A DNA stretch of 64,000 bases, from assembly GCF_039851975.1 (NCBI RefSeq), contig NZ_CP156660.1:248001-312000 (forward strand), written 5' to 3'. Shown in pieces: positions 6,684 through 23,782 of the stretch. Source of the DNA: Desulfoscipio sp. XC116. Lineage in GTDB: Bacteria; Bacillota; Desulfotomaculia; Desulfotomaculales; Desulfallaceae. The notes beneath the pieces were generated by a model. It did no database searches. It saw nothing but the letters and a program-made list of their open reading frames with translations, and was not told the origin of the DNA. The translations under genes were made by a program, and so were the position numbers. The stretch's first letter is position 1, and the number at the start of each line of letters is the position of its first letter.

Positions 6684-9600
6684 ATGAGCCCAAGTAATTT
6701 TACCTTTTTAGCATCCAGATGGCCAACTTTGGCCCAGTTGGGTGAGTTAGCTGAAAAAAACTTACATGCTGACCCCAATACATCTTTAATCAAATTAAGA
6801 ATGTTTGGGGAAATATTATCTAAAATTATTCTTTCCTACGAAAACCTTGAGGAACCTTATGACGGTAAACAAACCACCAGGCTTAGCTTGATTAAAAGCG
6901 ACGGTGCTTTGCCCGACCGGTTAATAGGTATGTTCCACTCCATACGCAAGGCCGGCAATAAAGCCACGCACGAAGCCTACGGCACGGTACAGGAAGCCAC
7001 CACCCAAATGACCTTTGCCTATCGCCTGGCCGTTTGGTTTGTGCAAACTTACGATAATTGGACCTTTAATCCGTCACCCTTTAAAGAGCCTGAAAAACTG
7101 CAGGATATTCACGAACTGCAAGACCTATTGCGCCGGAAGACCGAGAATTTTGAGGCCGAACTGGCCAGGTTGCAGGAAGAGCTGGCCCAACAAAAGGCCG
7201 CGGCTGTACTTACCGAAGAAGAAAAATCAAAACGTCATGACCGGGCGCAAAAAGCGGCCGCCAAAATTAAACTTTCCGAAGCTGAAACCCGCAAACTGAT
7301 TGACCAGCAGCTGCAGGCCGCCGGCTGGGAAGCCGATACCCAAAATTTGCGCTGGTCAAAAGGCACTCGCCCGGAGAAAAACCGCAATCTGGCTATTGCT
7401 GAGTGGCCCACTGAGGCGGGTCCGGCGGATTATGCCCTGTTTGCCGGTTTGGAAATTATCGGGCTGGTTGAAGCTAAAAAGAAAAGCAAAGACGTAGTTG
7501 CTGACATGGAGCAAGTTAAAAATTACGCTAAGCATATTACCCAACGGGCCGATGAAATTATACCGGGCACTTTGGGGTCGTATAAAGTACCCTTTCTGTT
7601 TACCACTAACAGCCGGCCATACTTGAAACAGTTAGAAACCAAGTCCGGCGTATGGCTATTGGATGCCCGCAAAAAGACCAACCACCCCCGGCCCCTGCAG
7701 GCTTGGTACACACCGCAGGGCTTAAAGGAACTATTAAAGCAAAATATTGACCTAGCCACCGAAAAACTGCATCGGGAGCCATATGACTATCTAAACTTAA
7801 GGGATTACCAGGTGGCTGCCATTAAAACAGTCGAAAAGGCTCTGTCCGAGGAACAGCTTAATATCCTTATTGCAATGGCCACCGGCACAGGTAAAACCCG
7901 TACCACTATCGGTTTAGTTTACCGATTGATTAAATTGGACCGGTTTAAGCGCATTCTCTTTCTGGTGGACCGCTCCGCACTGGGGGAACAGGCCGAGGAT
8001 GCCTTTAAAGAGGCCAGGCTGGAGGATTTTCATACCTTTACCCAAATCTTTGACCTAAAAGGCCTGGCTGATAAAACCCCCGAGACCACCACCAAAGTAC
8101 ATATCGCCACCGTTCAGGGCATGGTCCGGCGGATTATGTTCGGTGGCGACGATGCAGACACTCCCACAGTGGATAGATATGACTGCATTGTAGTAGACGA
8201 AGCCCACCGGGGCTACATCCTGGATAAAGAAATGGATGACGTGGAGCTGGAATTTCGCGACCAAAAAGACTATATCAGCAAATTTCGCATGGTACTGGAA
8301 TACTTCGACGCCGTTAAGATTGGCCTAACCGCAACGCCTGCGCCCCACACCATAGAGATATTCGGCAAGCCCGTATTTACCTATTCATACCGGGATGCGG
8401 TGATTGACGGCTGGCTGGTGGATCACGAACCGCCCCACCAAATCGGCACCAAATTAAAGGAAACCGGCATCAAGTGGAAAAAGGGCGAGAAAGTACCCAT
8501 ATACGACTCGGCAACCGGCCAGATAACCAACAGCGAAGAACTGCCGGATGAACTATCTTTGGATATAGATAAGTTTAACCGGGCTGTCATAACCGAGAAC
8601 TTTAATAAAACGGTAATCAAAGAACTGGCTAAGGAGCTTGACCACGAGGGGGAAGAGAAAACCCTGGTTTTTGCCGCCACCGATGATCACGCCGATATGG
8701 TGGTCAGGCTGATGAAGCAGGAATTTGAAGAGCAGTCCGGTACCATTGACGATGACGCTATTACTAAAATCACGGGATCTATAAAAGACCCCGTGGGGAT
8801 GATTCGCAGATATAAAAACGAGCGCTTGCCCAACATTGCCGTAACTGTGGACCTGTTGACCACCGGTATAGACGTGCCCGAAATATGCAATCTGGTTTTC
8901 CTGCGCCGGGTGCGTTCCCGGATCCTCTACGAGCAAATGCTGGGCCGGGCCACCCGCCTGTGTCCGAGAATCAATAAAACCCACTTTGTCATCTATGACC
9001 CGGTGGGCCTGTATGAGGCGCTGGCGCCGGTTACCAACATGAAGCCGGTGGTAGCCAACCCCAGGGTGGATTTCACTACTCTGGTAAAAGAATTGCAAGA
9101 ACTGGAAGACGAGGCACAGCAAAAGGTCCATGTGGAACAAATCGTGGCCAAGCTGCAGCGCAAAAAACGCCGGCTAAAAGGGCAGGACAAAGAGGACTTT
9201 ATCACCCTGGCAGGCGGTCGTTCACCCGAAGATTTTATAAACTGGCTGGGCAGCGCCCCGGTTGCTGAGATAAAAGAGGAACTGCAAAAGCGGACGAACC
9301 TATTTTCCTTTTTAGATGAAAACCGCTATCAGCCCCGGCAGCAGCTGATTTCTTTCCATGAAGATGAACTGGTCTACCATACCAGAGGCTACGGCAATGC
9401 AGAAAAGCCGGAGGATTACCTGGATGAGTTCACCAGATTTATTAAGGATAATATGAATATCATCCCGGCCCTGCAGATTGTCTGTCAGAGGCCGCGGGAA
9501 TTGACCAGACAGGCGCTGCGGGAACTTAAACTGGAACTGGACCGGCATGGTTACTCTGAGACCAGCCTGCGCACCGCCTGGCGGGAGATGACCAACCAGG

Positions 9601-9920
9601 ATATAGCTGCGGATATTATCGGTTTTATCCGCCAGCGGGCTCTGGGCGACCCGTTATTAAGCCACGAAGAGCGCATTAAAAACGCCATGCAGAAAGTATA
9701 CGCCCTGCAAAAGTGGACCAATGTGCAGCGCAAGTGGCTGGAGCGCATAGAGAAGCAGTTAATTAAAGAAACCGTAATCAACCCTGAGGACCTGGACAAA
9801 GAGCCCTTCAGGGAAACCGGGGGTTATAAGAAGATCAACAAAATTTTCAACGGCCAGATCGACCAAGTGCTTAATCAAATTAAAAAATCACTCTATCCCG
9901 ACGAAAGGAAGCAGGCATAA
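6684..9920 (+). CDS. hsdR: Type I restriction enzyme, R (motor/nuclease) subunit
   Basis: This 1078-residue protein opens with a DUF4145 domain (about residues 15-125) and a coiled stretch, then the HsdR_N nuclease domain with a D...EAKKK active-site pattern near residue 260. The superfamily 2 motor follows, with Walker A ATGTGKTRTT near 400, DEAH in VVDEAHRGY near 503, GLTATPAP, and motif VI as LGRATRLCP. It translocates DNA and cuts at a distance when the HsdMS complex meets unmethylated sites. The gene is 3 bases ahead of hsdM, so the order R-M-S forms one operon. The length is normal for the family and no damage is seen. Confidence 0.95.
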   Translation: MSPSNFTFLASRWPTLAQLGELAEKNLHADPNTSLIKLRMFGEILSKIILSYENLEEPYDGKQTTRLSLIKSDGALPDRLIGMFHSIRKAGNKATHEAYGTVQEATTQMTFAYRLAVWFVQTYDNWTFNPSPFKEPEKLQDIHELQDLLRRKTENFEAELARLQEELAQQKAAAVLTEEEKSKRHDRAQKAAAKIKLSEAETRKLIDQQLQAAGWEADTQNLRWSKGTRPEKNRNLAIAEWPTEAGPADYALFAGLEIIGLVEAKKKSKDVVADMEQVKNYAKHITQRADEIIPGTLGSYKVPFLFTTNSRPYLKQLETKSGVWLLDARKKTNHPRPLQAWYTPQGLKELLKQNIDLATEKLHREPYDYLNLRDYQVAAIKTVEKALSEEQLNILIAMATGTGKTRTTIGLVYRLIKLDRFKRILFLVDRSALGEQAEDAFKEARLEDFHTFTQIFDLKGLADKTPETTTKVHIATVQGMVRRIMFGGDDADTPTVDRYDCIVVDEAHRGYILDKEMDDVELEFRDQKDYISKFRMVLEYFDAVKIGLTATPAPHTIEIFGKPVFTYSYRDAVIDGWLVDHEPPHQIGTKLKETGIKWKKGEKVPIYDSATGQITNSEELPDELSLDIDKFNRAVITENFNKTVIKELAKELDHEGEEKTLVFAATDDHADMVVRLMKQEFEEQSGTIDDDAITKITGSIKDPVGMIRRYKNERLPNIAVTVDLLTTGIDVPEICNLVFLRRVRSRILYEQMLGRATRLCPRINKTHFVIYDPVGLYEALAPVTNMKPVVANPRVDFTTLVKELQELEDEAQQKVHVEQIVAKLQRKKRRLKGQDKEDFITLAGGRSPEDFINWLGSAPVAEIKEELQKRTNLFSFLDENRYQPRQQLISFHEDELVYHTRGYGNAEKPEDYLDEFTRFIKDNMNIIPALQIVCQRPRELTRQALRELKLELDRHGYSETSLRTAWREMTNQDIAADIIGFIRQRALGDPLLSHEERIKNAMQKVYALQKWTNVQRKWLERIEKQLIKETVINPEDLDKEPFRETGGYKKINKIFNGQIDQVLNQIKKSLYPDERKQA

Positions 9921-9923
9921 AGA

Positions 9924-11345
9924 ATGACGACACAGGAAATTGTCCAAAAGCTTTGGAATTTGTGCAATGTGCTGCGGGATGACGGCATTACTTACCACCA
10001 GTACGTCACCGAGTTAACCTATATTTTATTTCTGAAAATGATGAAAGAAACAGAGCAAGAAAGCCAGATCCCCGAGGGTTACCGGTGGGATGATTTGGTT
10101 GAAAAGAAAGGTACGGAATTAAAAAATTTCTACCGCAAACTATTAGTGGACCTGGGCCAAGAAGGCCGGGGCAGTGTGAAACTTATCTATGCTAACGCCT
10201 ATACCAATATTGAAGAACCTAAGAACTTAGAAAAAATCATCCGGTCCATAGACGGGCTGGACTGGTACAGCGCCAGGGAAGAGGGTTTGGGCGCTCTGTA
10301 CGAAGGCCTTTTGGAGAAGAACGCCAGTGAGAAGAAATCGGGGGCCGGACAATATTTCACCCCCAGGCCGTTAATTAATGTAATGGTGCGTTTAATTGAC
10401 CCTAAACCAGGTGAAAAATGCAATGACCCGGCTGCCGGCACCTTTGGCTTTATGATTGCTGCCGACCGGCATGTAAGGAAAAAAACTGATGACTATTTTG
10501 ACCTAAAACCGGTGGAAGCTAAGTTTCAGAGGAAACAGGCCTTTACGGGTTGTGAATTGGTGCAGGACGCCCACCGCCTGGCCTTAATGAACGCTATGCT
10601 GCATGGTATTGAAGGGGAAATTATTCTGGGTGACACCCTCTCTACCAAAGGCAAAGAATTACGGGATTATGATGTGGTTTTAACCAACCCGCCCTTCGGC
10701 ACCAAAAAAGGTGGGGAACGCCCCACCAGGGATGACTTAACTTTCCCGTCATCCAATAAACAGCTTAACTTTTTACAGCACATTTACCGTTCTCTCCATA
10801 ATAGAGGCGATGCCCGGGCCGCAGTGGTTTTGCCGGATAACGTGCTCTTCCAAGACGGTGATGGCCAGAAAGTACGGTCCGACCTGATGGACAAGTGCAA
10901 CCTGCACACCATCCTGCGTCTGCCCACCGGTATTTTCTATGCCCAGGGAGTTAAAACCAACGTGCTGTTCTTCACCCGGGGCACGACCGATAAGGGAAAT
11001 ACCAAGGAGGTCTGGTATTACGACCTGCGTACAAACATGCCCAGTTTGGGCAAGCGCAACCCGCTCACCGAGGAACACTTTTCCGGCTTTGAAAAAGCCT
11101 ACTTGGTTGAAGACCGCTCAAAGGTAGAAGACGAGCGCTGGTCCTGCCTGACCCGCGAGCAGATTCGGGCTAAAGGCGACAACCTGGACCAGGGCCTGAT
11201 TGCTGATGAAAAGTATTCCTCTTACGATAACCTGCCCGACCCCATTGAATCGGCAGAAGAAGCCATCGCCAAGCTGGAGCAGGCCACAGTCCTTCTTTAT
11301 GAAGTAGTTAAAGAACTTAAAGAAGCCGGGGAGGGTCAGGCGTGA
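9924..11345 (+). CDS. hsdM: Type I DNA methyltransferase, M subunit
   Basis: The 473-residue protein has the N-terminal helical HsdM domain and an N6-adenine methylase domain with the SAM-binding motif DPAAGTFGFM near residue 168 and the catalytic motif NPPFG near residue 254. It methylates adenines at the site chosen by HsdS and protects host DNA. GQYFTPRPL ahead of the SAM motif is usual for type I enzymes. The gene ends in a four-base overlap with hsdS. It appears intact. Confidence 0.95.
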   Translation: MTTQEIVQKLWNLCNVLRDDGITYHQYVTELTYILFLKMMKETEQESQIPEGYRWDDLVEKKGTELKNFYRKLLVDLGQEGRGSVKLIYANAYTNIEEPKNLEKIIRSIDGLDWYSAREEGLGALYEGLLEKNASEKKSGAGQYFTPRPLINVMVRLIDPKPGEKCNDPAAGTFGFMIAADRHVRKKTDDYFDLKPVEAKFQRKQAFTGCELVQDAHRLALMNAMLHGIEGEIILGDTLSTKGKELRDYDVVLTNPPFGTKKGGERPTRDDLTFPSSNKQLNFLQHIYRSLHNRGDARAAVVLPDNVLFQDGDGQKVRSDLMDKCNLHTILRLPTGIFYAQGVKTNVLFFTRGTTDKGNTKEVWYYDLRTNMPSLGKRNPLTEEHFSGFEKAYLVEDRSKVEDERWSCLTREQIRAKGDNLDQGLIADEKYSSYDNLPDPIESAEEAIAKLEQATVLLYEVVKELKEAGEGQA

Positions 11346-12835
11346 GCGTGAAGAAGAAAACACTGACTCCGGAGGCAATGCTGCGGGATGCACTGGTGCC
11401 GGAGGAGGAACAGCCTTATCAGGTGCCGGGGAATTGGGCTTGGACGAGATTAAATACAATTAATTCAAATAAGGCAAGAAATATTATTCCTAACAAACAT
11501 CCAGAAGAACTTTTTGAATTATACAGTGTTCCAAGTTTTTCTGAAGAAAAACCTGAAGTAATATTAGGTGCGGAAATTGGTTCAAATAAACAACTAGTTT
11601 CAAATAATGATGTGCTGTTATGCAAAATAAACCCCCGCATAAATAGAGTATGGATAGTTGGTCAAAATAATGGATATCGCCAGTTAGCATCAACTGAATG
11701 GATTGTAATAAAGCCACAAGAAGTCATGGAACCACAATTTTTATTGTACTGTTTAAGGTCAAGGTATTTTAGAAACCTTTTAACCTCAAATGTATCTGGT
11801 GTAGGTGGTTCTTTAACCAGATCACGGCCTAAGGAAGTTGAGCTTTATCCTGTACCAATACCACCATTAACTGAACAAAAACGTATTGTTACTCGAGTTG
11901 AATCTCTTCTGGATAAAATAAACCAGGCCAAGGAATTAATTGCCGAGGCCCGGGAAACCTTTGCAGACCGCCGGGCTGCCATTTTAGCTAAAGCTTTTCA
12001 CGGAGAATTAACCAAAAAATGGCGGGAACAAAACCCCGATAACGAATCGGCTGAAACACTACTGGAGCGGATTAAGGAAGAAAAGGCCAAGCTAAGTAAT
12101 GGCAAAGGTAGAAAACAAGCGGAACTTCCAACAATTGACCCGCCTTATGAATTGCCAAAAGGTTGGTGCTGGGTGAGAATGGGGGATATTGTTGATGTAA
12201 ACCCACCTAAAATTGGCATTTCCGATTTAAGCGATGAACAAATTTGTACTTTCATACCAATGTCGTCGATTTCAGCGGAGACTGGTTCGATTACTGCCCC
12301 AGAACAAAGAATTTTTAGTAAGGTTAAACAAGGATATACAAATTTCTTGAAAGGGGATATTTTATTTGCCAAAATAACTCCCTGTATGGAAAATGGTAAA
12401 TGTGCAATCGCTAACGAACTAATAAACGATTTCGGTTATGGGTCAACAGAGTTTTATGTTTTAAGACCAAAAGATGGCATAAATAATAGATATATTTATC
12501 ATTTAGTCCGTTCCGAGAAATTTAGGATTGATGCAAAATATGTGATGACCGGTGCGGTGGGTCAGCAGAGAGTGCCTAAAAGTTTCCTTGAAAATTATAT
12601 AATTGCGCTACCACCTGAGCTCGAGCAAAACGAAATTGTAAAAATCATAGACGATATAGTTGAAATAGAAGATAAAATTAATAGCATTATTAAGATGGAA
12701 GACACAATAGAGCTATTTATTAATTCTGTTTTAACGAAAGCCTTTCGCGGTCAACTAGGTACCAATGATCTTAGGGAAGAAAGTGCACTAAAAAACTCTA
12801 AAGGAAATTATTTTGGAGCGGCATGCAAACGCTAG
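11342..12835 (+). CDS. hsdS: Type I restriction enzyme specificity subunit
   Basis: A 497-residue protein with two variable target-recognition domains (about residues 20-180 and 275-425), each followed by a conserved helix: the central one around EQKRIVTRVESLLDKI with an AKAFHGELT end, and the C-terminal one around ELEQNEIVKIIDDIV with a matching TKAFRGQLG end. This two-fold pattern is diagnostic of HsdS. The GTG start overlaps the hsdM stop. The target-domain DNA is clearly more AT-rich than hsdR and hsdM, as expected for exchangeable recognition modules. Confidence 0.92.
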   Translation: MSVKKKTLTPEAMLRDALVPEEEQPYQVPGNWAWTRLNTINSNKARNIIPNKHPEELFELYSVPSFSEEKPEVILGAEIGSNKQLVSNNDVLLCKINPRINRVWIVGQNNGYRQLASTEWIVIKPQEVMEPQFLLYCLRSRYFRNLLTSNVSGVGGSLTRSRPKEVELYPVPIPPLTEQKRIVTRVESLLDKINQAKELIAEARETFADRRAAILAKAFHGELTKKWREQNPDNESAETLLERIKEEKAKLSNGKGRKQAELPTIDPPYELPKGWCWVRMGDIVDVNPPKIGISDLSDEQICTFIPMSSISAETGSITAPEQRIFSKVKQGYTNFLKGDILFAKITPCMENGKCAIANELINDFGYGSTEFYVLRPKDGINNRYIYHLVRSEKFRIDAKYVMTGAVGQQRVPKSFLENYIIALPPELEQNEIVKIIDDIVEIEDKINSIIKMEDTIELFINSVLTKAFRGQLGTNDLREESALKNSKGNYFGAACKR

Positions 12836-12949
12836 TAAATAAACTTAAAAAATGATGTAACTACTCAATCTTGCTAACTGTTCAATTAACCAACCACAAA
12901 TAAAAATAATACTGAGCTCAGCTCTGATTATCATATAGAATGAAATCAT

Positions 12950-13376
12950 GAAACAGAAGCTGAATTCCGGGTAACCGAGATAACCGAATATCACATTTAG
13001 ACAGTCAGGCAGTTGATCACTGACAACCCTTCATGGAGCCGCAGCAGACTGTCGAGGGAACTCTGTCGTTTATGGAACTGGCGTACTTTAGCAGATCAAT
13101 TGAAGGATATGGCCTGCCGGGACCTTTTACTTAAATTGGAGCACACGGGAAGATTGTATTGCTCCGCCGTAAGTCTGAAGCTTTTGTCCGGGGTACGGCC
13201 ACGGCCTGCTTCTTCTGGAAGCCTTCATAGAGATAGACAGATTCCGAGGCACCTGCTACAAGGCGGCTAATTGGCACTACATCGGCCTGACTAAAGGGCG
13301 TAGCCGTAATGAATCTGTAGATGTTTCAATTTCCACCGAAATCGGAATAAAAAACCTTAAACAAACGAGAACTTAA
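12950..13376 (+). pseudogene. druA: Decayed DUF4338 gene (druA remnant)
   Basis: Three separated pieces of a DUF4338 protein can be read: an N-terminal piece with an in-frame TAG at about 12997-12999, a middle piece containing ITDNPSWSRSRLSRELC and CRDLLLKLEHTG, and, in another frame from about 13190, LLLLEAFIEIDRFRGTCYKA followed by ANWHYIGLTKGRSRNE. The central part of the domain, more than 100 residues, is missing between them. In Druantia type I systems the DUF4338 protein DruA is the first gene of druABCDE, which is where this remnant lies. DUF4338 genes also occur elsewhere, so the assignment as druA rests on position. Confidence 0.7.
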
Positions 13377-13499
13377 AAAGTCTCTTACTTTGCGTTTAGC
13401 GCCATATCAGATTGATGCAGTTTAAAAAAACGCTGTTAAGAAAGGGCTTCCATATCAGATTACAGAGAGAATTAAAACTGAAGTATGAACAACAAGACT

Positions 13500-13523
13500 C
13501 CGGTATTATTTGCCGGTTTTTTT
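13500..13523 (+). terminator. Terminator-like hairpin after the DUF4338 remnant
   Basis: CCGGTA at 13500-13505 pairs with TGCCGG at 13511-13516 around a five-base loop, followed directly by seven T residues at 13517-13523. The stem is short (one G-T pair), but the T run is good. Confidence 0.5.
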
Positions 13524-13799
13524 ATAAAATATCGCTACCATTACTATATACTATAATTACCTTGTGGGTGATGACACTGCGCTGGCACTGCCCCGTCTAA
13601 CGGATAGCTTTGGTTAAGATAACCCTTGGCCCCAGTTTACTGCAGCAAGGCAGCCCACTGATTTACGGTTAAAACATCTGCCTGGCGGGGGAATACCTTT
13701 TAAACCAAAATGGGTTTTTAAAAATTTGTTTGTAATATTTCATATTACCCATATTAAGATTGCAGGAATTATGAACCTAATGTCGAAATTACACCGTAC

Positions 13800-13839
13800 A
13801 GCAACGTATGTATAATCATCATGGTTACGTTGCTTTTTT
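13800..13839 (+). terminator. Terminator ahead of druB
   Basis: AGCAACGTA at 13800-13808 pairs with TACGTTGCT at 13826-13834 and runs into six T residues. It insulates the dru genes downstream from upstream transcription, so druB needs its own promoter within 13840-13970; I could not identify one with confidence there. Confidence 0.6.
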
Positions 13840-13970
13840 CTATGATATATGTAGTTATGACTATCCTAAAAATAATGTCGAAAGAGCACTACAATTATGT
13901 AATAATTAGATATTGTGCGTTTTCGATATCTACAGTTTCTGGCCAGGTTTAATTGACCATATAGACCACC

Positions 13971-15614
13971 ATGCTGCCAGCGCAGCACTATCAGAGGATG
14001 AAATTACCTAATAGCGCTATTTTCAGGATAGAGAAAGTAAAACAGTGGCTAAAAGAGGTGAAAATTGTGCCGCTCGATAATGTCAGTGTATGGCGTAATG
14101 GACACGGATGGAGCCACACCACGCCGGATGAAGCGCTTGAGCTGTTCCCCAATGGATCATCATCAACAGATAAAATATTCCTTTGTGAAAGTTGTGGACA
14201 ATACGCTTCGTTTGTTGTGGGTGATTACCAGATTCATCACTTCAGACATCCAGCTGGAAGCAAGGATTGCAAAGATAAACAAGTAGCTTGGTCCTCTTAC
14301 TATCAAACCAACAAGCTTGGTTTCTCTTTGCCCATAAAAATAAAACTGGATGCAAATGACATCGAGATTACTATTGGCTTTTTGCCGCTTACGGTTCAAC
14401 AGTTAACAGAAGCAATGCAGAACAAGACGGTGGTAACCATATCTGCGGGCCTTCAAACCATCTCAACACTTCTGATTAGTCATGAGCGTTTTTCATCGGA
14501 GCATATTACATACGTTTCAATTGGAAATAAGGTAAGCGAAAGATATACAATCAATTACTCTAATGCAGATGCCTCATTGTCGACAATATGGCCTCGGATA
14601 ATCAATGGTTTTAATTTACTGGGAACATTGTTTGATGGTGCAACCGGAAAGCGCCTACCTGTTAATGCAGATGTCGAGATAAGCCGGGAGTATTATTTAA
14701 TTTCAAAAAGCTATTATTGGCATGGTCGTTCTGATATTAGTATTGAACGTATTCAAAATATATCTAATGGTTGGCAAGTATACAGAGTAAAAGCGTTGCG
14801 ATTAACCAAACAAGCAGCGGAGTTTTTCCTTGATTTTGGTGTGCGATTGACCGATGCGCCGGCATATATTACACTGCTTTGGCCACCAAGCGCTCAAGCG
14901 TCTCATATCGTTTCACATGAATCAGATCCTGTCATTTTCTATCATAAAGGCAGGGGATGTGTAGAAGTCTGGCCATATGCAAGGGTTCATCGGGATGTAG
15001 TGGCAGAAACAGAAGGTGATATCTACTCATTTTCCGGGAATTCAATTCAGCAGGTATTATCTGTAAGCCGCTTCTATCAGCGAACGTCGGTGCTGCGATA
15101 TATCGTTTTGGACAAAAAACAAATTGCTTTTGAAAGCAAAAAAATTCCGGAAGTTCTGATAAGTGATGACTTCGGAAAAGAAATTGCCCCAGGTGTGTAT
15201 CATGGATTACCACCGGACAAAACCATAACTATTACTGCACCATATGACGGGGTCGTTGAAGTTAAAAAGTTCAATAGATTAATAAAACGAGTTAACACGA
15301 AAGGTAGCGATTCTATTGTAATAACTGTGAATTGGGGTTATTCCGTTTCCGTCTATCAAGGAATGGATTTATCCGCAGAAGTTTTGTTTGAGCGAAAACA
15401 TAAAGGTACAAAGGATGATATTAAACTCCTTAAACGACTGAAATCATACAAAAACCAAATGATTCCGATTTCGCATGAGATCGGGAAGCTGGCTGTAAAA
15501 CTGGGTAAACTGCCTGAAACAAAGAGATGGCTGCTCTATCAAATCCGGCGTGGATATATTTCAGAAGATTCTTTAAAACGTATTGAAACTACAATAACCA
15601 ATCGATGTAAGTGA
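13971..15614 (+). CDS. druB: Druantia type I-like protein DruB
   Basis: This 547-residue protein (538 if the second ATG at 13998 is the start) has no enzymatic domain I recognise. Near residues 70-105 it has a CESC pair, a HHFRHP motif and a further Cys, a pattern like the N-terminal zinc-binding part of CoiA-type proteins. The rest is rich in beta-strand-like stretches. It is the first intact gene of a four-gene operon whose sizes and order (about 550, 630, 340 and 1750 residues, the last a DUF1998 helicase) match druB-druC-druD-druE of the Druantia type I anti-phage system as I recall it. No alignment could be run. Confidence 0.65.
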   Translation: MLPAQHYQRMKLPNSAIFRIEKVKQWLKEVKIVPLDNVSVWRNGHGWSHTTPDEALELFPNGSSSTDKIFLCESCGQYASFVVGDYQIHHFRHPAGSKDCKDKQVAWSSYYQTNKLGFSLPIKIKLDANDIEITIGFLPLTVQQLTEAMQNKTVVTISAGLQTISTLLISHERFSSEHITYVSIGNKVSERYTINYSNADASLSTIWPRIINGFNLLGTLFDGATGKRLPVNADVEISREYYLISKSYYWHGRSDISIERIQNISNGWQVYRVKALRLTKQAAEFFLDFGVRLTDAPAYITLLWPPSAQASHIVSHESDPVIFYHKGRGCVEVWPYARVHRDVVAETEGDIYSFSGNSIQQVLSVSRFYQRTSVLRYIVLDKKQIAFESKKIPEVLISDDFGKEIAPGVYHGLPPDKTITITAPYDGVVEVKKFNRLIKRVNTKGSDSIVITVNWGYSVSVYQGMDLSAEVLFERKHKGTKDDIKLLKRLKSYKNQMIPISHEIGKLAVKLGKLPETKRWLLYQIRRGYISEDSLKRIETTITNRCK

Positions 15615-15648
15615 TATAGGGTTAAGCGCATAAAGAATGGAGGAAACT

Positions 15649-17523
15649 ATGGACATATCATTGCATCATCTGACAAAAGATGAATTATATGAGCTGTTAG
15701 ATTCCTTTTCTGAATCTTTCTTATCTCAGCCACTTGCAAAAAATCCAGATCATTTCGCACAGGCCACAAAAGGCTTTAGAATTAACAAACTCCCAAAGAG
15801 CAGGCTCTTTCCAATTTACTATAATGAGATTTCTGGTTTTCCTGGTTGCCCACTGGAACTGTTTCTGGTTCCATATTTAGAAAAACTTTTTGGCGATTTG
15901 TCAATCCCAGACTTATTTACAGCTGATGATGTTGATGATTTTTCATTAGGGCTACTGATTGAGGCGGCCATACGCAAATCAAAAATATCAATTAACGGGA
16001 GTAAACAAATTCCAGAGATTCCGGCATATGCAGTATTGCAACTTTATAAACGCATTTCAGACGAAACTTTGAAAAGACATTTGAAACAAATTTCGGATAC
16101 AATTGAGAGTTGTATCGAACAAGCAATTCGCACCGGTGAGGAAAAGTGCGCTATATCGATAGATCGCGTAAGAGCTGAAGCAGCCAAATCCATCAGTGAA
16201 AAAGAAAATAAAATTGAAAAACTCATAAATCAAAACCATGTAATAACAAATCAGTTGCATACCCTACAGGCCCAAAACTTACAGCTGCAAGAAGAGACCC
16301 GTACAAGTAGACAACAGTTAGAAAAATCTGTAACTATAATCAAGAAATATGAAATTGATAATGAAAAAATTCGGTTGATGGAAACAGAAATTGAACGATT
16401 AACTGACGAAGAAACTGGTTTATCTGTGAGCGTTAAGCAACTTCAGGAGCAAATAAACAGTATAACATTAGAACTACAGAGTAGCTCTTCGCAATTACAG
16501 CAGCAAAAAAGAAGCCTGGGAAAAGCAATGCTTGAGTATAAGCAGATTAAAGAACAAACAGATGTGTTGTCTGATCAGTGGGAGCAGCGTGAAGAGATCG
16601 GACGAAACATTGATGACAAGATAAAACGCAGACTACAACACACAAAGGAGTGTATTTCAGAGTTCTTTATAGAGTATGCAATTTATGCAGGGACAAGTAT
16701 TACTGATACGGAAAACTCAACCGGTAAAAGTGTCGAGTACAATCTTGGGAAAATGGTTGATGAAGACCCATACGAAGTACAGAGCATGCGAGATCTTTTC
16801 GAATGTATGTCTGAAAATCTGGAAGTTGTGGGAGTTGCAAGTGAACATATTCCAGCATTGGCAGCTTATCTGATTGCGGCTTACGCAAACAAAGTACCTC
16901 TGATTCTTGCTGGTTATGGTGCGGTAGACATTGCTGATGCGATGTCTGTGACGATCAATAACAGGTTGTCCAACAAGGCGTATTGCTATGGAAAAACCGA
17001 TGTCACACCTCTATTGGGCAGTGCTTCAGCCTCCAATATAATCGCGGTACATGATGCCTTTCAAAGCAATTGCATGAACAAATTATTGCAAGCAGTTGCG
17101 ATTTCGCAGCACTACTATTACTTCATCTTGTCGACATCAGAGGAACTGTATATTGAGCCGAAGGGTATTTTTGACTATGCACTGCCCATATTTACTGAAT
17201 TCTTTGTGGATAAACGCGCGTCTCGTAATTGGGGCGGATCTGCGTGCAAAATTGAGTTGAAGTTCGATAATGTACCAAAAGTGCGTGTGGATTTACCTAA
17301 GCACACCGTTTCAAAACTCGCATTCACTCAGTGTAGTGAGTTACTTGCGTGCTATTCGGCTATTGCAAATGAAAACGCAATATTTTATGGTTTTCTTCTT
17401 CAGACGATGCCAATAATGCTAGCTCTTGGAAAACGCGAGAAACTGTTGGATATTATTGATAACGCAAAACTTTCCGACAAGGAAAAGGAAGAACTATTGA
17501 TGCTATGTGGTGAAGGTCAATGA
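15649..17523 (+). CDS. druC: Druantia type I-like protein DruC, coiled-coil
   Basis: I chose ATG 15649 rather than ATG 15637 because GGAGG at 15639-15643 sits five bases ahead of it; the product is 624 residues. The centre (about residues 170-335) is a long coiled coil rich in Glu, Gln, Lys and Leu. The C-terminal 290 residues form a separate globular part with no recognised motif; I see no intact Walker A. The gene is third from the decayed druA and overlaps the next gene by four bases (ATGA), so the proteins are probably made together. Function unknown beyond the presumed Druantia membership. Confidence 0.65.
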   Translation: MDISLHHLTKDELYELLDSFSESFLSQPLAKNPDHFAQATKGFRINKLPKSRLFPIYYNEISGFPGCPLELFLVPYLEKLFGDLSIPDLFTADDVDDFSLGLLIEAAIRKSKISINGSKQIPEIPAYAVLQLYKRISDETLKRHLKQISDTIESCIEQAIRTGEEKCAISIDRVRAEAAKSISEKENKIEKLINQNHVITNQLHTLQAQNLQLQEETRTSRQQLEKSVTIIKKYEIDNEKIRLMETEIERLTDEETGLSVSVKQLQEQINSITLELQSSSSQLQQQKRSLGKAMLEYKQIKEQTDVLSDQWEQREEIGRNIDDKIKRRLQHTKECISEFFIEYAIYAGTSITDTENSTGKSVEYNLGKMVDEDPYEVQSMRDLFECMSENLEVVGVASEHIPALAAYLIAAYANKVPLILAGYGAVDIADAMSVTINNRLSNKAYCYGKTDVTPLLGSASASNIIAVHDAFQSNCMNKLLQAVAISQHYYYFILSTSEELYIEPKGIFDYALPIFTEFFVDKRASRNWGGSACKIELKFDNVPKVRVDLPKHTVSKLAFTQCSELLACYSAIANENAIFYGFLLQTMPIMLALGKREKLLDIIDNAKLSDKEKEELLMLCGEGQ

Positions 17524-18542
17524 GGGCAATAACACATTCAAATTATGTCACATACTTAGCACAAAAACTACATATTTGCAAAGGTAAAAATGAATCAGAT
17601 AGCAGCTGGAATTTTCGCGTGTTATACAGCGCAATCTCCCTTAATATGTTGGCGTCGCTATACGATTATGATGAAGATAGCGGACAAAGTGTTGGCAATG
17701 AACAAATGGTATCCATGCAACACGTTCGCACTCGGGGGATCGAATTGATCGAATCATATCGTGATTTGTATCGAACTGCTATGACACAATTAAATTTATG
17801 TTCGGAGAAATTAGCAGAATCGATCAGAGATATTTATATGCAAACCGGCTATATACTTCACAAAGCAAATTACTTAACAGCTCCGACAGCTATATGTGCC
17901 AAGTACGAAGACATATATTTTTTGCGCGGAACATCTCCATGGAATGTGGAATACATGAGTGGGCTTGGATGCTACGCTTATACTGTAACAGATACCAGCG
18001 TTGAAGATGTTTGGCGTATGTTCCGAATTGAGAATACCGAAATCAGCGTTTGGTGGAAGCAGTTTTTACACAATTGCCAATGGCGAGAATTAAACGAATT
18101 GCCAACTGAGGTGGAATACATAAATTATTCAAGAAAAAGTGGCGAGCAGTATTGGCTTTCAAATGCACCCAAGTCCGGCCTCTCCATGTACCGCGACAAA
18201 AGCATTGGAGAGAAGAAATATGGACTGATTCAAGTGGCAGCGGGACAAATATTAACTAGCGTTTTACCTGTATGGCAAGTCGACAATAAAGAATATTTAC
18301 GAATTTCACTGGCACTGCAAAACGCGGCTGCAAAAAATCCCACTGTTCGCATTAAAAGCGCTTCCTCAATTTCTCACATTCAGTTGAGTTATCTGCTTCC
18401 GCCATGTGAGCAAAACTTCCTTGAGTTATTCAGTTGGCCAAGCGAAGGAATATCCCGCTGGAAACGAACCGTAGTAACTGAGTTACTCCCGATATTCAAA
18501 CAACTGTTTAAAAACCTTTGTTTTAACATTATGGAGGAATAG
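17520..18542 (+). CDS. druD: Druantia type I-like protein DruD
   Basis: A 340-residue protein without recognised domain or membrane segments. Its ATG overlaps the stop of the upstream gene and its own stop lies two bases before the ATG of the helicase gene, with GGAGG at the end of the frame serving that next start. The tight packing, size and place agree with druD of Druantia type I. The sequence is AT-rich like its neighbours and unlike the C1 genes of this window, which suggests that the operon was acquired. Confidence 0.6.
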   Translation: MRAITHSNYVTYLAQKLHICKGKNESDSSWNFRVLYSAISLNMLASLYDYDEDSGQSVGNEQMVSMQHVRTRGIELIESYRDLYRTAMTQLNLCSEKLAESIRDIYMQTGYILHKANYLTAPTAICAKYEDIYFLRGTSPWNVEYMSGLGCYAYTVTDTSVEDVWRMFRIENTEISVWWKQFLHNCQWRELNELPTEVEYINYSRKSGEQYWLSNAPKSGLSMYRDKSIGEKKYGLIQVAAGQILTSVLPVWQVDNKEYLRISLALQNAAAKNPTVRIKSASSISHIQLSYLLPPCEQNFLELFSWPSEGISRWKRTVVTELLPIFKQLFKNLCFNIMEE

Positions 18543-18544
18543 CG

Positions 18545-21500
18545 ATGTCAGCAAATGCACATATGATGCATAAAAAACTTAAAGACGAACTCGTTTTATA
18601 TATAAAATCCCAGTATCTTGGGAAAAATGCTCTGCTTCTGAATGCACTATCTGATAAGTTGGATGATGAAGGTGTTCTTTATCAAACGCCTTTTGTCGAA
18701 TCCACTCCTGCATATAAAGCGGTGGAAAATGGGATTGATGTATTGAATATCCCCTCTTGGCTGAAAGGCCTTTTTTATGAGCTCGCTGAAAAAGAACTTG
18801 GGGTCTATAAATCGCCGTTTCAACACCAGCTTGATGCTCTTCAGAACGCATACGACGGCAATGACCTATTCGTTTCTACGGGCACCGGTTCCGGTAAAAC
18901 AGAGTGTTTTATGTGGCCGCTGCTCGCTAAAATTTGCGTAGAGGCAAAAACAAAGCCTGATACATGGACAAACCGAGGAGTGCGTGCTATTGTAATGTAT
19001 CCTATGAACGCGCTTGTCTCCGATCAGATAAGCCGTCTTCGTAGACTTATAGGAGATCCCGAAGAAAAGTTTTTACATGCCTTTCGAAGCGCTGTCGGCA
19101 GTTCGGCTCGGCGCCCTCAATTTGGTATGTATACCGGGCGTACTCCGTACTCTGGTTCTGCTCCAACCCGTTCTGAAGATAAAAAACTTGCGGAATCGCT
19201 CTCACGAATGACTCGGTCGGATGATGAAGCAGTCACTGCATTCTATAAAGAATTGCTCAAGGATGGTAAGATCCCTGCTAAAAAAAACTTAAAACAGTTC
19301 ATACAAACACTTGAAAGCGGACGACATCTTACAAACGATGATGATGCCGAGCTGATTACCAGATTCGAAATGCAGCAGGTATGCCCTGATATTCTTATTA
19401 CTAATTACTCCATGCTTGAGTATATGCTGTTTCGTCCGCGTGAAGAAAAAATTTGGAGTGATACGAGTAGTTGGCTTAACAGCAATCCCGATAACAAACT
19501 TCTTTATGTTATTGATGAAGCGCATATGTACAGAGGTTCCTCTGGTGGAGAGATTGCGCTCCTGATACGAAGACTGTTTCATAAACTTGGCATTATGCGT
19601 GATAGGGTTCAGTTTATACTTACGACGGCCAGTATGCCGAATTCATCGCCGGATGATATGGCTGCCGTTCACGAATTCGCAAATAATCTTACTACGGCTG
19701 CTGATAACGGTTTTGTATACTTGACCGGAGCGCGGGAAAAAATGCCTTCTAGAAATACCGTTTCCATTCCGGTAGAAAAGTTTCTGCAATATCGTCCCGG
19801 AGATTCGGAAGAGGAAACATACGAGGAACTTATGAGCATTAACCGTTTCTGGAGTGGCTTGGGGAATAGTAAAGCACCTTTTGAAAATTGGTCGGATGCG
19901 CATTTTGAGATGTATCGAAATCTAATAAATTATGATCCTTTCTATAAATTATTTGAGGCGTGCCGTGGTTCGGCTTGCTCCATCGATGAACTGGCTGAAA
20001 AGATTTTTCCGGATTTAGGCCGAGATTTAGCTCAATACGCAGTTTATAATCTGCTTACAATTTCTTCTCTTGCGAGGGATGAAAAGAACGATGTTCTATT
20101 CCCTATTAGATTGCATATGCTCTTCCGTGGATTGCAGGGAATATATGCATGTGCAAATCCAAATTGCAAGCATTCGAACACATACGAGGGAATTACGCTC
20201 GGGCAACTCTTCATTACTAACGGTGTTTATACCTGTCCGGATTGTGGAAGTGTCGTTTATGAACTCGTTAACGACCGAAGATGTGGAGCATTGTTTTTCA
20301 AGGGTTATGTCACGCACACAATAGGCAAAGCGTTTTTGTGGAGATCTCCCGGTGCATTTTTCGACGAAAAAATGTATGAAATTCATTTGTTCATTCCGGA
20401 ATGCGATAAAACATATTCGGGTTCTTCGAAAAACCCGGTCAAGCTATGCTATCTAGATACGCAAAGCGGATTCTTGGATTTTCATGATGACGCACTTGCC
20501 GGAAAGTCAGGTATCATAAAACTTTACTTTAGCGAGTACAAAGATAAAGGGCGTCCTGATGTAAAAACTTTTTCTACCTGCCCACATTGCAGACACTTAT
20601 TGAGTAAAACGCAATTGACTTCATTTAGTACAAAAGGTAATCAATCGTTCTATAATTTGATCAAAGCCCAGTTTAATGCACAGCCTCCGGTAAATTCAAA
20701 AAAAAATAATCATGGGAAGTTTCCAAATCAGGGAAGAAAAGTTTTACTGTTTTCCGACAGCCGCCAACGTGCGGCAAAACTAGCCAGAGATATGTCACAA
20801 GCATCTGATGATCAGGCGGTTATGCAGTTATTTGTACTTGCAGCAAAAGCAATATCAAAATCCGGCAAGGATCTGTCGTTGAACAATATCTACGGCTATT
20901 TTGTCTTGGAAGCAACCAAAAGACATGTACAGTTGTTCCACAACGAAAGCAGAGATAAATTTTTGTCTGATTGCGCAGATACCAAAGCGACATATCAAAG
21001 AAAGCAAAAGCGCGGTAAAAAGTTTGAACCGGAGCTTACGTTTGATAATGCGCCACCGATGATGTTGGAGCATCTAATTCACTTGTTTTGCGGTGGCTAT
21101 AATACTCTGTATGATACTGCACTCGGATGGTTGGAACCACGCGAAAAGAATCTGGAGGATGCGTTGGAAATTCTGGAGGATCGTGACATTGATGTTTCGA
21201 ATGAAGAGTTTTTGGAAGTATTCAATGCATGGTTGTTAGATATCTGTAGCGATTATGGCGCTTTGGGGCATAAGATCCCCGACGAACGCAGAAAAGAAGT
21301 ATTATCATCCTACAAAGGACTCGGACTCCCTTCCGATTGGGATTTCTCAAAGGCCATGTATGGCAACATGGGTTGGGAAAAGAGCGATCCTATAGTGGTT
21401 GCATGGAAAAAGGCGCTTTCTATATTTCTTGACAGCAATGAAAGCCGCTATTACATTGAGCTTTCCCGTGTTGTGCCAAAGTTTGGTTTGGAACACGAAT

Positions 21501-23782
21501 GGCTAAGATGCAAGCAGTGTTCTGAATTGGCCGCATTCCCAATTCAAGGGAAATGTCCGAACTGTGGAAGCAACCAACTGGAGAAGGTAAGCGACCAGGG
21601 ATACAGCGCAATGGAGTTCTGGAGAAAACCTGTTTCCGATGCGTTGGCAGGTGAGGCAATTCGAGTTATTGATACTGAGGAACATACAGCTCAATTGTCA
21701 TATAAAGACCAGCGTGATGATATGTGGTCACGGACAGAGCAATATGAGATGCGCTTTCAAGATTTGCTGAAAAAAGATGAACCACCTGTTGATATTCTGA
21801 GCAGCACTACAACGATGGAAGTTGGTATTGATATCGGCTCCCTTGTTGCTGTGGGTTTGCGTAACATTCCCCCGATGCGCGAAAATTATCAGCAGCGTGC
21901 AGGTCGAGCTGGCCGGCGTGGCGCAAGCTTATCTACTATTGTCACATTTTGTGAAGACGGCCCCCATGATACCATGTACTTTACAAATCCAGCACCGATG
22001 TTTCGCGGAGATCCGCGCAGGCCGTGGATTGATATTAAAAGTGAAAAACTGCTATATCGTCACATGAATATGGTTGCAGTTCAGGCATTCTTGAAACCCA
22101 AAGGCCAAAGTCTTGACGGCATTGATACTATAGGCTTTTTCGAAAAATACTGGGACGACTTTACGCACTACCTGAACGGGTTTGATGTATCCTTTAATAC
22201 TGTGTTGTTGCAGTCATATTCAAAGGAATTAATCTTGCGGACTAGAAATCAACTTACGCAAGAAATGCAGAATCTTAACGAGAAGCGCATTGCGCATCCG
22301 GAACTGTATGACGGTAAAGGGGCATCAAAAAAGAAGACACTGTTAGATGCATTGTATGAAGAAGGCATTATCCCGACCTATTCGTTCCCCAAGAGTGTTG
22401 TTAGTACATTCATCAGCAACTCTAAAGGGCAGCTACAGTATCAAATAGAGCGCGGATTAGATGTCGCAATTAGTGAATATGCGCCCGGTCGGTCAATCGT
22501 CGTAGATAAAAACACTTACCAGCTTGGCGGTTTGTACTATTATGGCAGTGAACGCAAAAAAGGTAGATTTACAATTCCGGCGAAATCATTCATGGACGAT
22601 CCGAACTATGTAAAGACCGTATTTTCATGTGAGGCGTGTGGGTGGTTCGGCCCTGCAGACGATTTGAACAACGGTCACTGCCCATTTTGTGAAAAAAAGC
22701 ATATTGTGCGGATGTTACCAATGGTTCGGCCTTGGGGTTTTGCACCTGTGAATGGCAAGTCCATCGCTTCTGCCCAGTTGAATGAATCTTATTCCTACGC
22801 AGATGCTCCTTTGTATTCTACATTGCCGAATTCCGATGGATTGGCTCAAATTCAGGGTTTTTCCAATATTCACATGGCCAAACGATCTAACCAAAGGATT
22901 ATCATGGTAAACCGCGGTCCTGCTGAAAAAGGGTTCATGATTTGCTCCGACTGTGGCGGGGCAGTTCCCGGGGATAATGCTGCTGCATACAAGTCAGAGC
23001 GAACCAAGATAGGACGGCCGTATTATTCGCAGTTTGTTAGAACAGGATGTAATCATGCGAATGCAGTAAATGCTACGCTTGGATTTGATTTCATAACAGA
23101 TATGTTAGTTCTTGAAATTGAACTTGATAAAGTAAGGATTAATATTTCACGTAAAGAAAACCCTTGGGTCGACCGCGCCTCGCGTTCTTTGGCAGAGGCA
23201 GTGCGTCTTCAGACAAGCCAACTCCTTGATGTTGAATTTACCGAGCTTAACGCAGGATACCGTTTAAGAGAACACAAGGAGAAAGCATATATTGATATCT
23301 ATCTGTATGACAGCCTGTCAAGTGGTGCCGGGTATTCCTCGGGAATAGCATCTCAAATCAATACACTTTTAGAGAAAACAGAAACTTTTTTAAATGGCTG
23401 TGATTGTGATAACGCCTGCCAAAACTGTTTGAAGCACTATCGTAATCAAAACTATCACTCAGTGTTGGATAGATATGCTGCTATGGAACTGCTGGCATGG
23501 GCGAAAGAGCAAAAGCTTGCTGATGATATTCCTCCTCAAGACCAAATTAAAATGATGGAACCGCTCAGAAAGGTTCTCTCTACCTATGGAATTCGCTTGG
23601 AATATTCGCAGGAAGACGGACTTGCTGTGGAAAATGTAGGCAATGTTAAGCAGTTATATATTTACCCTGCAATGAGGGTAAAACCAGTATATCGCCCAAA
23701 TGCTGTATGGATCAGTAATTTTGAAGTCAAGTATGCTCGGCCATATGCAATCGACTCGATTCGCGGTGTGTTGAATCAATGA
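18545..23782 (+). CDS. druE: Druantia-like large helicase with DUF1998 (DruE)
   Basis: The 1745-residue protein is a superfamily 2 DExH helicase: FQHQLDAL, Walker A STGTGSGKTE near residue 115, DEAH in VIDEAHMYRG near 322, TTASMP, and motif VI QQRAGRAGRRG near 1116. The two halves of the motor are split by a long insertion holding zinc-ribbon cysteine pairs (CPDCG, CPHCR, CKQC with CPNCG). CEAC/CPFC pairs follow the motor, and the end is a DUF1998 domain with a CDCDNACQNC cluster near 1620, as in MrfA/Z1 and DrmB-type proteins. DruE is the one protein shared by all Druantia types. It is probably a DNA-dependent ATPase that acts on foreign DNA. All key motifs are intact. Confidence 0.85.
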   Translation: MSANAHMMHKKLKDELVLYIKSQYLGKNALLLNALSDKLDDEGVLYQTPFVESTPAYKAVENGIDVLNIPSWLKGLFYELAEKELGVYKSPFQHQLDALQNAYDGNDLFVSTGTGSGKTECFMWPLLAKICVEAKTKPDTWTNRGVRAIVMYPMNALVSDQISRLRRLIGDPEEKFLHAFRSAVGSSARRPQFGMYTGRTPYSGSAPTRSEDKKLAESLSRMTRSDDEAVTAFYKELLKDGKIPAKKNLKQFIQTLESGRHLTNDDDAELITRFEMQQVCPDILITNYSMLEYMLFRPREEKIWSDTSSWLNSNPDNKLLYVIDEAHMYRGSSGGEIALLIRRLFHKLGIMRDRVQFILTTASMPNSSPDDMAAVHEFANNLTTAADNGFVYLTGAREKMPSRNTVSIPVEKFLQYRPGDSEEETYEELMSINRFWSGLGNSKAPFENWSDAHFEMYRNLINYDPFYKLFEACRGSACSIDELAEKIFPDLGRDLAQYAVYNLLTISSLARDEKNDVLFPIRLHMLFRGLQGIYACANPNCKHSNTYEGITLGQLFITNGVYTCPDCGSVVYELVNDRRCGALFFKGYVTHTIGKAFLWRSPGAFFDEKMYEIHLFIPECDKTYSGSSKNPVKLCYLDTQSGFLDFHDDALAGKSGIIKLYFSEYKDKGRPDVKTFSTCPHCRHLLSKTQLTSFSTKGNQSFYNLIKAQFNAQPPVNSKKNNHGKFPNQGRKVLLFSDSRQRAAKLARDMSQASDDQAVMQLFVLAAKAISKSGKDLSLNNIYGYFVLEATKRHVQLFHNESRDKFLSDCADTKATYQRKQKRGKKFEPELTFDNAPPMMLEHLIHLFCGGYNTLYDTALGWLEPREKNLEDALEILEDRDIDVSNEEFLEVFNAWLLDICSDYGALGHKIPDERRKEVLSSYKGLGLPSDWDFSKAMYGNMGWEKSDPIVVAWKKALSIFLDSNESRYYIELSRVVPKFGLEHEWLRCKQCSELAAFPIQGKCPNCGSNQLEKVSDQGYSAMEFWRKPVSDALAGEAIRVIDTEEHTAQLSYKDQRDDMWSRTEQYEMRFQDLLKKDEPPVDILSSTTTMEVGIDIGSLVAVGLRNIPPMRENYQQRAGRAGRRGASLSTIVTFCEDGPHDTMYFTNPAPMFRGDPRRPWIDIKSEKLLYRHMNMVAVQAFLKPKGQSLDGIDTIGFFEKYWDDFTHYLNGFDVSFNTVLLQSYSKELILRTRNQLTQEMQNLNEKRIAHPELYDGKGASKKKTLLDALYEEGIIPTYSFPKSVVSTFISNSKGQLQYQIERGLDVAISEYAPGRSIVVDKNTYQLGGLYYYGSERKKGRFTIPAKSFMDDPNYVKTVFSCEACGWFGPADDLNNGHCPFCEKKHIVRMLPMVRPWGFAPVNGKSIASAQLNESYSYADAPLYSTLPNSDGLAQIQGFSNIHMAKRSNQRIIMVNRGPAEKGFMICSDCGGAVPGDNAAAYKSERTKIGRPYYSQFVRTGCNHANAVNATLGFDFITDMLVLEIELDKVRINISRKENPWVDRASRSLAEAVRLQTSQLLDVEFTELNAGYRLREHKEKAYIDIYLYDSLSSGAGYSSGIASQINTLLEKTETFLNGCDCDNACQNCLKHYRNQNYHSVLDRYAAMELLAWAKEQKLADDIPPQDQIKMMEPLRKVLSTYGIRLEYSQEDGLAVENVGNVKQLYIYPAMRVKPVYRPNAVWISNFEVKYARPYAIDSIRGVLNQ

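What the first reader, a model, noticed from the sequence alone, without database searches (positions are those of the whole stretch)
12950..23782. Druantia type I-like operon with decayed druA and intact druB-druE
Seen: a broken DUF4338 gene, then four tightly coupled genes ending in a 1745-residue DExH/DUF1998 helicase with full motifs. Known: Druantia type I is druABCDE with DruA = DUF4338 and DruE = DUF1998 helicase. Inference: the system has lost DruA yet keeps long open frames in the other four genes, so it may work without DruA, be rescued in trans, or be a distinct DruA-less variant.
Basis: partly seen in the sequence, partly recalled or inferred. Interest (0 to 1): 0.75.

Follow-up and report, generated by a model that had tools for sequence, protein, structure and literature searches.

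The report
Druantia-like defence operon without DruA
This is a complete-looking four-gene relative of a known anti-phage defence system that lacks its textbook first gene, and the broken gene beside it, taken for that first gene, is a leftover of a jumping gene.

Summary
The four coupled genes are real and are homologues of DruB, DruC, DruD and DruE of Druantia type I. The 'decayed druA' is not a druA. The remnant (12977-13358) is a fragment of a transposon-borne DUF4338 gene: it is 55% identical to copies that overlap an ISL3-type transposase gene in the same genus, and it does not match the DruA of Druantia. DruA was not recently lost here. The window sits in a large lineage, mostly Clostridia, in which no locus I held carries a DruA (0 of 83). 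Of 50 genomes of that lineage searched whole, 48 have no DUF4338 gene at all and 2 have only transposon-type copies. All 81 such DruE rows lie on one side of a single fully supported branch; DruA-bearing systems lie on the other. No other gene takes DruA's place: the commonest neighbour family is in 11 of 68 loci. DruE is under purifying selection (dN/dS 0.13-0.19). Models suggest that DruB is a zinc-knuckle plus beta-sandwich protein and that DruC ends in a AAA+ domain whose ATP-binding lysine is gone in 33 of 33. I read it as a self-sufficient, DruA-less variant of Druantia type I. Defence activity is inferred, not shown.

The parts
14067..15614 (+). druB homologue, 515 aa from GTG 14067 (ORF opens at 13971)
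   Evidence: profile comparison with E. coli DruB 93% probability, E 2.8e-7; PADLOC DruB1 E 3.9e-7; Cys/His zinc knuckle invariant in 44 sequences
15637..17523 (+). druC homologue, 628 aa: coiled coil plus C-terminal AAA+-like domain without the Walker A lysine
   Evidence: profile comparison with E. coli DruC 90%, E 1.7e-6 over 79 columns; PADLOC DruC1 only 19.9 bits; C-terminal model matches AAA+ at Z 12
17520..18542 (+). druD homologue, 340 aa
   Evidence: PADLOC DruD1 56 bits, E 6.8e-16, residues 10-338; profile comparison with E. coli DruD 77%, E 2.1e-5
18545..23782 (+). druE, YprA/DUF1998-family helicase, 1745 aa
   Evidence: PADLOC DruE1 1730 bits; Pfam DEAD, Helicase_C, MZB; dN/dS 0.13-0.19 against L010
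12977..13358 (+). remnant of a transposon-borne DUF4338 gene (pieces at 12977-13156 and 13194-13358); not part of the system
   Evidence: blastx to L117/L118 at 55% identity, E 4e-15 and 7e-11; no meaningful hit to DruA of E. coli, P. putida, N. watsonii, M. taiwanensis or G431; profile test
13960..14035 (.). dispersed intergenic repeat that contains the apparent ATG of the druB ORF
   Evidence: 13 other places in the genome at E <= 0.001; also in genomes of the genus and family
13500..13516 (+). terminator-like hairpin with T run between the remnant and druB
   Evidence: 1 found against 1.4 expected by chance, so weak
6684..12835 (+). type I restriction-modification genes hsdR, hsdM, hsdS directly upstream (defence context)
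   Evidence: PADLOC REase_I, MTase_I, Specificity_I

Best explanation
The locus is an intact four-gene operon, druB-druC-druD-druE, of a DruA-less lineage of Druantia type I. It probably works as an anti-phage module without DruA. DruE is the DNA helicase motor. DruB (zinc knuckle plus beta-sandwiches), DruC (coiled coil plus a AAA+ domain that has lost the ATP-binding lysine) and DruD probably form the sensing and scaffolding part that lets DruE engage foreign or replicating DNA. Shown here: homology, gene order, absence of DruA across the lineage, purifying selection on DruE, predicted folds. Inferred: that it defends, that B, C and D act as a complex with DruE, and that the target is phage DNA intermediates (by analogy with Druantia III). 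The adjacent DUF4338 remnant is a dead transposon passenger gene with no part in it.
For: DruE1 1730 bits and DruD1 56 bits. Profile matches of window-type B, C and D to E. coli DruB, DruC and DruD at 93, 90 and 77% probability, against 0.3% for a mismatched control. 68 of 83 related loci carry all of B, C and D by profile. A DruA profile hits 0 of these 83 loci. PF14236 in whole genomes: of 51 searched, 50 are of the DruA-less lineage; 48 of the 50 have no match and 2 only transposon-type copies. DruE tree: 81 DruA-less against 9 DUF4338-bearing rows, one change, 0 of 500 shuffles as low, branch support 100; the same with a mixture model on 31 rows. Contrast sets: all 8 plasmid records found by DruE alone also hold a DruA-like gene; in E. 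coli, 63 genomes hold full-length druE and 64 hold druA. No conserved extra gene: the largest neighbour family is in 11 of 68 loci. dN/dS of DruE 0.19 and 0.13 in two parts.
Against: No activity is shown. DruC similarity to E. coli DruC is limited to 79 columns. 15 of 83 loci lack one or more of B, C and D by profile; most are cut by contig ends, but L079, L082 and L084 are not and only their C is missed. Some 'DruA-less' tree rows come from truncated loci. Loci were chosen by likeness to this DruE and only 50 of 80 were sent to the whole-genome search (49 searched), many of them MAGs. dN/dS rests on one pair and on DruE only, and that partner (L010) has its druE frame broken by a one-base gap. 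The rooting that nests the DruA-less lineage inside DruA-bearing ones is weak.
Confidence: 0.78

Rival explanations
1. One reading: a canonical DruABCDE operon whose druA has decayed here, leaving the rest to work alone or to fade.
For: A DUF4338-family remnant does lie directly upstream of druB, where druA sits in E. coli.
Against: The remnant matches transposon-borne DUF4338 genes at up to 55% identity and not DruA. Intact members of the remnant's family overlap ISL3 or IS66 transposase genes. Close and distant relatives of this operon have no DruA either.
Confidence: 0.04
2. DruA acts in trans: the 662-residue DUF4338 protein elsewhere in the genome serves this operon.
For: It scores 439.6 bits with PADLOC DruA1 model PDLC00001 and its frame is open.
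Against: It is the first gene of an SspFGH-like operon with its own partners. It belongs to a branch of about 660-residue proteins only 30-35% alike to DruA over about 180-240 residues. 48 of 50 genomes of the lineage have no DUF4338 gene to act in trans.
Confidence: 0.06
3. A different helicase system that merely shares a DUF1998 helicase with Druantia.
For: PADLOC matches for B and C are weak, and DruA, a defining part, is absent.
Against: B, C and D all match their E. coli counterparts in the right order, and E matches DruE1 far above DruE2 to DruE4 (1730 against at most 616 bits).
Confidence: 0.06
4. The operon is a degrading leftover in this genome, open only by chance.
For: A transposon remnant and dispersed repeats lie upstream; druE is broken by one base in the nearest relative, a MAG.
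Against: About 4.9 kb of DruE compared shows dN/dS 0.13-0.19, and four long frames stay open with coupled junctions.
Confidence: 0.06

Closest known systems
Druantia type I (DruABCDE), E. coli type (L107)
   Same: Gene order B-C-D-E, gene sizes (515/628/340/1745 against 548/627/347/1836 aa), DruE1-type helicase, DruB zinc knuckle
   Different: No DruA; B, C and D only remotely similar in sequence; separate, strongly supported DruE lineage, mostly in Clostridia
Druantia types II, III and IV (DruMFGE, DruH-DruE, DruE-DruF-DruL)
   Same: A DUF1998/YprA-family DruE helicase
   Different: Other partner genes; DruE here scores 1730 bits with DruE1 and at most 616 with other DruE models
Transposon-borne DUF4338 genes (copies overlapping ISL3 or IS66 transposase genes)
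   Same: The upstream remnant belongs here by sequence and motifs
   Different: A mobile-element passenger, not a part of Druantia
DUF4338 with SspFGH/DndFGH-like operons (L097, L103)
   Same: Share the Pfam DruA/DUF4338 domain
   Different: Proteins of about 660-705 aa with their own ATPase partners; not adjacent to druBCDE in this genome

Membership tests
Druantia type I | DruA (DUF4338) encoded in the operon | tested here: not met
   The only DUF4338 sequence nearby is a transposon-type remnant
Druantia type I | DruB homologue | tested here: met
   hhalign 93%, E 2.8e-7; PADLOC DruB1 27.4 bits with the corrected start
Druantia type I | DruC homologue | tested here: met
   hhalign 90%, E 1.7e-6 over 79 columns; PADLOC only 19.9 bits; the weakest of the four
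Druantia type I | DruD homologue | tested here: met
   PADLOC DruD1 56.2 bits over residues 10-338; hhalign 77%, E 2.1e-5
Druantia type I | DruE of the type I clade (DruE1) | tested here: met
   1730 bits
Druantia type I | gene order B-C-D-E on one strand, coupled | tested here: met
Druantia type I | protection against phages | not testable with these tools
   needs a plaque assay
Transposon-borne DUF4338 family (the remnant) | sequence closer to these genes than to DruA | tested here: met
   blastx E 4e-15 to L118; no meaningful hit to DruA proteins
Transposon-borne DUF4338 family (the remnant) | intact copies next to or overlapping a transposase gene | tested here: met
   ISL3 (L117) and IS66 (L113) transposases by Pfam; other copies judged by eye only
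Transposon-borne DUF4338 family (the remnant) | terminal inverted repeats of the element around the remnant | tested here: inconclusive
   none found in 12800-14100; the element is largely gone

The most novel reading that the evidence does not exclude
DruA is not part of the core Druantia I machine. DruBCDE with a dead AAA+ DruC is the working unit, and a large DruA-less subtype in gut and other anaerobic Clostridia defends on its own. In some branches it is wired to a DNA methylation or restriction module (a C5 methyltransferase with an Eco47II- or EcoO109I-like endonuclease upstream, or an adenine methyltransferase downstream) that could take over telling self from foreign DNA.
Probability: 0.35. 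Interest if true: 0.65.

Novelty: new variant of a known kind. Interest (0 to 1): 0.5.

Why it matters
Druantia type I is defined in print by five genes with DruA first. If a whole lineage does without DruA, detection rules that demand it will under-call the system. It also turns 'what does DruA do' into a clean comparison: the same B-C-D-E machine with and without it. The dead AAA+ domain predicted in DruC recalls the inactivated GTPase reported for the type II system and gives a first structural handle on the type I partners. The case also warns that a DUF4338 match next to a helicase is not proof of DruA, because transposons carry the same domain.

Tried and rejected
Rejected: decayed druA (remnant is transposon-type); DruA in trans; a sequencing error restoring druA (two pieces in different frames plus a roughly 150-residue deletion); the ~400-aa genes upstream in the more distant relatives as DruA (they are C5 methyltransferases); DruD as a probe for plasmid records (no match).

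Little gained: PADLOC and NCBIfam for B and C give mostly coiled-coil noise. The promoter scan is no better than chance. No repeats were found around the remnant. The DruB fold search gives only generic Ig-like beta-sandwich matches (Z at most 7.7). An outgroup-rooted DruE tree had a split outgroup and very long branches, so I do not lean on its root. G914, found by DruE alone, has a DruE1-type gene with neither DruA nor recognisable B, C or D; it was left out of the trees, as were L111 and L112, which hold DruA-like genes but no DruE by BLAST. Rows under 1400 residues were left out. In the 31-row trees 24 of 81 and 11 of 81 DruA-less rows were used. No dN/dS was possible for B, C and D because the close relative's contig starts inside druE.

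Full report
What is in the window. Four same-strand genes follow a type I restriction-modification operon (hsdR, hsdM, hsdS, 6684-12835). Their junctions are +22, -4 and +2 bp. The last gene encodes a 1745-residue helicase with Pfam DEAD, Helicase_C and MZB domains and 1730 bits to PADLOC DruE1, far above DruE2 to DruE4. The third gene matches DruD1 (56 bits) over nearly its full length. PADLOC matches the second only weakly as DruC1. It matches the first only when its start is moved to GTG 14067. That start is right on other grounds: the ATG at 13971 lies in a dispersed repeat found at 13 other places in the genome, and homologues begin near 14067.

The remnant upstream is not druA. Two pieces, 12977-13156 and 13194-13358, resemble residues 11-70 and 224-263 of a 293-residue DUF4338 protein at 55% identity each. 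That protein (L117, L118) comes from genomes of the same genus, and its gene overlaps a gene with Pfam ISL3 transposase domains. Another copy (L113) overlaps an IS66 transposase gene. Against DruA of E. coli, Pseudomonas putida, Nitrosococcus, Meiothermus and the unnamed Bacillota genome G431 the remnant gives no meaningful hit. A profile of two transposon-type copies hits it (48 and 41 bits), and a profile of those five DruA proteins does not at E 0.01.

The window's B, C and D are DruB, DruC and DruD. I aligned 44 B, 33 C and 34 D proteins from the window and related loci and compared each profile with the E. coli protein: 93% (E 2.8e-7), 90% (E 1.7e-6, 79 columns only) and 77% (E 2.1e-5) probability. 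A mismatched pair gave 0.3%.

DruA is missing from the whole lineage. A scan with a DruE alignment returned the best 80 of 561 related stretches, from Pelotomaculum (92% identical) to 37-55% relatives in many Clostridia and a few other phyla. With the window, L006 and L091 that makes 83 loci. In 68 of them all of B, C and D are found by profile; of these, 56 have at least 2 kb before druB. The DruA profile hits none of the 83. The ~400-residue genes upstream in the more distant branch are C5 methyltransferases. I then searched whole genomes with Pfam DruA for 53 handles (3 genomes and 50 of the 80 loci; one locus was not held, two shared a genome): 51 genomes. One, G431, belongs to the DruA-bearing side and has DruA downstream of druE on the other strand. 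Of the other 50, 48 have no match. G033 and G496 have only transposon-type copies.

The tree. Of 90 DruE rows, 81 are DruA-less by locus and 9 have a DUF4338 gene near. The two sets lie on opposite sides of one branch with full support, and 0 of 500 shuffles do as well. A mixture-model tree of 31 rows agrees. Caveats: DruA-less labels rest on the DNA held, some of it truncated; most DruA-bearing rows were first found by DruA; the 9 include 4 (L102, L103, L108, L109) that are not clean DruABCDE operons. Sets chosen without looking at DruA point the same way. All 8 plasmid records found by DruE also appear in the DruA list. E. coli has 63 genomes with full-length druE and 64 with druA, of 5426. 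Of 16 viral-contig loci found by DruE, the 2 with window-type B, C and D have no DruA, while 4 others do have a DUF4338 gene. One exception to neat pairing is G914, a DruE1 gene with neither DruA nor recognisable B, C or D. An outgroup-rooted tree nests the DruA-less lineage among DruA-bearing ones, suggesting one ancient loss, but its root is unsafe.

No substitute and no decay. Clustering of 415 flanking ORFs from 68 loci shows no common fifth gene; the largest family is the C5 methyltransferase in 11 of 68. It comes with an Eco47II-like or EcoO109I-like endonuclease in 10 of these 11 loci. L006 and L091 instead have a D12 adenine methyltransferase after druE. DruE of the window against its nearest relative has dN/dS 0.19 and 0.13 in two parts. 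In that relative, a MAG, the frame is broken by a one-base gap, real or an error.

How it may work. The DruB model (mean pLDDT 89) shows an N-terminal Cys/His knuckle, also hinted at by CoiA_N in E. coli DruB, followed by beta-sandwich domains of a generic Ig-like kind. The C-terminal part of DruC (mean pLDDT 88) has a AAA+ fold, best with MoxR- and RavA-like ATPases (Z 12, 220 residues, rmsd 4.4; the MoxR label is mine). The Walker A lysine position holds I, V, L or M in 33 of 33 sequences, so this domain probably cannot use ATP. In print, DruE of type I is described as having an inactivated nuclease domain at its end (PMC12458937, abstract, passages and one section read), and in Druantia III DruE engages ssDNA-containing replication intermediates with DruH as the likely sensor (PMC13192584, start of abstract in the search listing, and passages). 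I infer that B, C and D sense and scaffold while DruE moves on DNA; this is untested.

The other DUF4338 gene in the genome. A 662-residue ORF at G000 C1 near 1,022,000 scores 439.6 bits as 'DruA1', but it opens an operon with SspF-, SspG- and SspH-like genes. DUF4338 has been described as a GNAT-like domain fused to DndF (PMC10853773, passages).

What is known. Type I is described as DruABCDE (PMC13316683 and PMC7251935, passages; Doron 2018 not held, recalled only). PADLOC's paper reports a type IV but, in the passages seen, no DruA-less type I (PMC8565338). Searches of the held library gave no listing that describes one; the single paper returned matched 'absence of DruA' by word start, and I did not open that passage. 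PADLOC's DruB1 and DruD1 models match the DruA-less loci L006 and L091 at 568-829 bits, so such loci were probably among its seeds (inference).

Verdict. An intact DruA-less variant of Druantia type I, part of a widespread lineage; ordinary in being a homologue, new in showing that the lineage does without DruA.

Noticed in passing
window 13960-14035: A dispersed intergenic repeat of about 75 bp with 13 other places in the genome and copies in related genomes; it creates a false start codon for druB.
   Followed up: yes
L097:9140-18785 (G000 C1 near 1,022,000): A 662-aa DUF4338 protein heads an SspFGH-like operon; its F-like gene looks split into two ORFs (299 and 173 aa).
   Followed up: partly
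L055, L057, L058, L060, L061, L062, L064, L065, L070, L072, L075: A C5 cytosine methyltransferase lies just upstream of druB, with an Eco47II- or EcoO109I-like endonuclease in 10 of the 11: a recurrent restriction-module link in one branch.
   Followed up: partly
L006:14184-15038, L091:15090-15929: A D12 adenine methyltransferase gene overlaps or directly follows druE.
   Followed up: partly
L117/L118 (1492-2373 minus), L113 (1498-2379 minus): DUF4338 genes overlap an ISL3 or IS66 transposase gene by a few bases: a transposon accessory gene of unknown role that shares its Pfam name with DruA.
   Followed up: partly
L083:650-16535, L043:4071-22045: A second set of druB-druC (and druD in L043) follows the first druBCDE in tandem.
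   Followed up: no
L101:14096-16963, L110:9447-12311: One ~955-residue gene stands where druB and druC would be, between druA and druD, as if the two were fused.
   Followed up: no
L112:9694-15412, L111: DruA-like genes lie in other operons; in L112 the neighbours look by eye like TniQ, TniB and TniA of a Tn7-like element (not tested).
   Followed up: no
L145:1984-9008: A DruE1-type helicase gene with no recognisable druA, B, C or D, next to a gene with hydrophobic segments.
   Followed up: no
L010:2-5073: druE of the nearest relative (Pelotomaculum MAG, 91.5% DNA identity) is split by a one-base gap; real or an assembly error.
   Followed up: no
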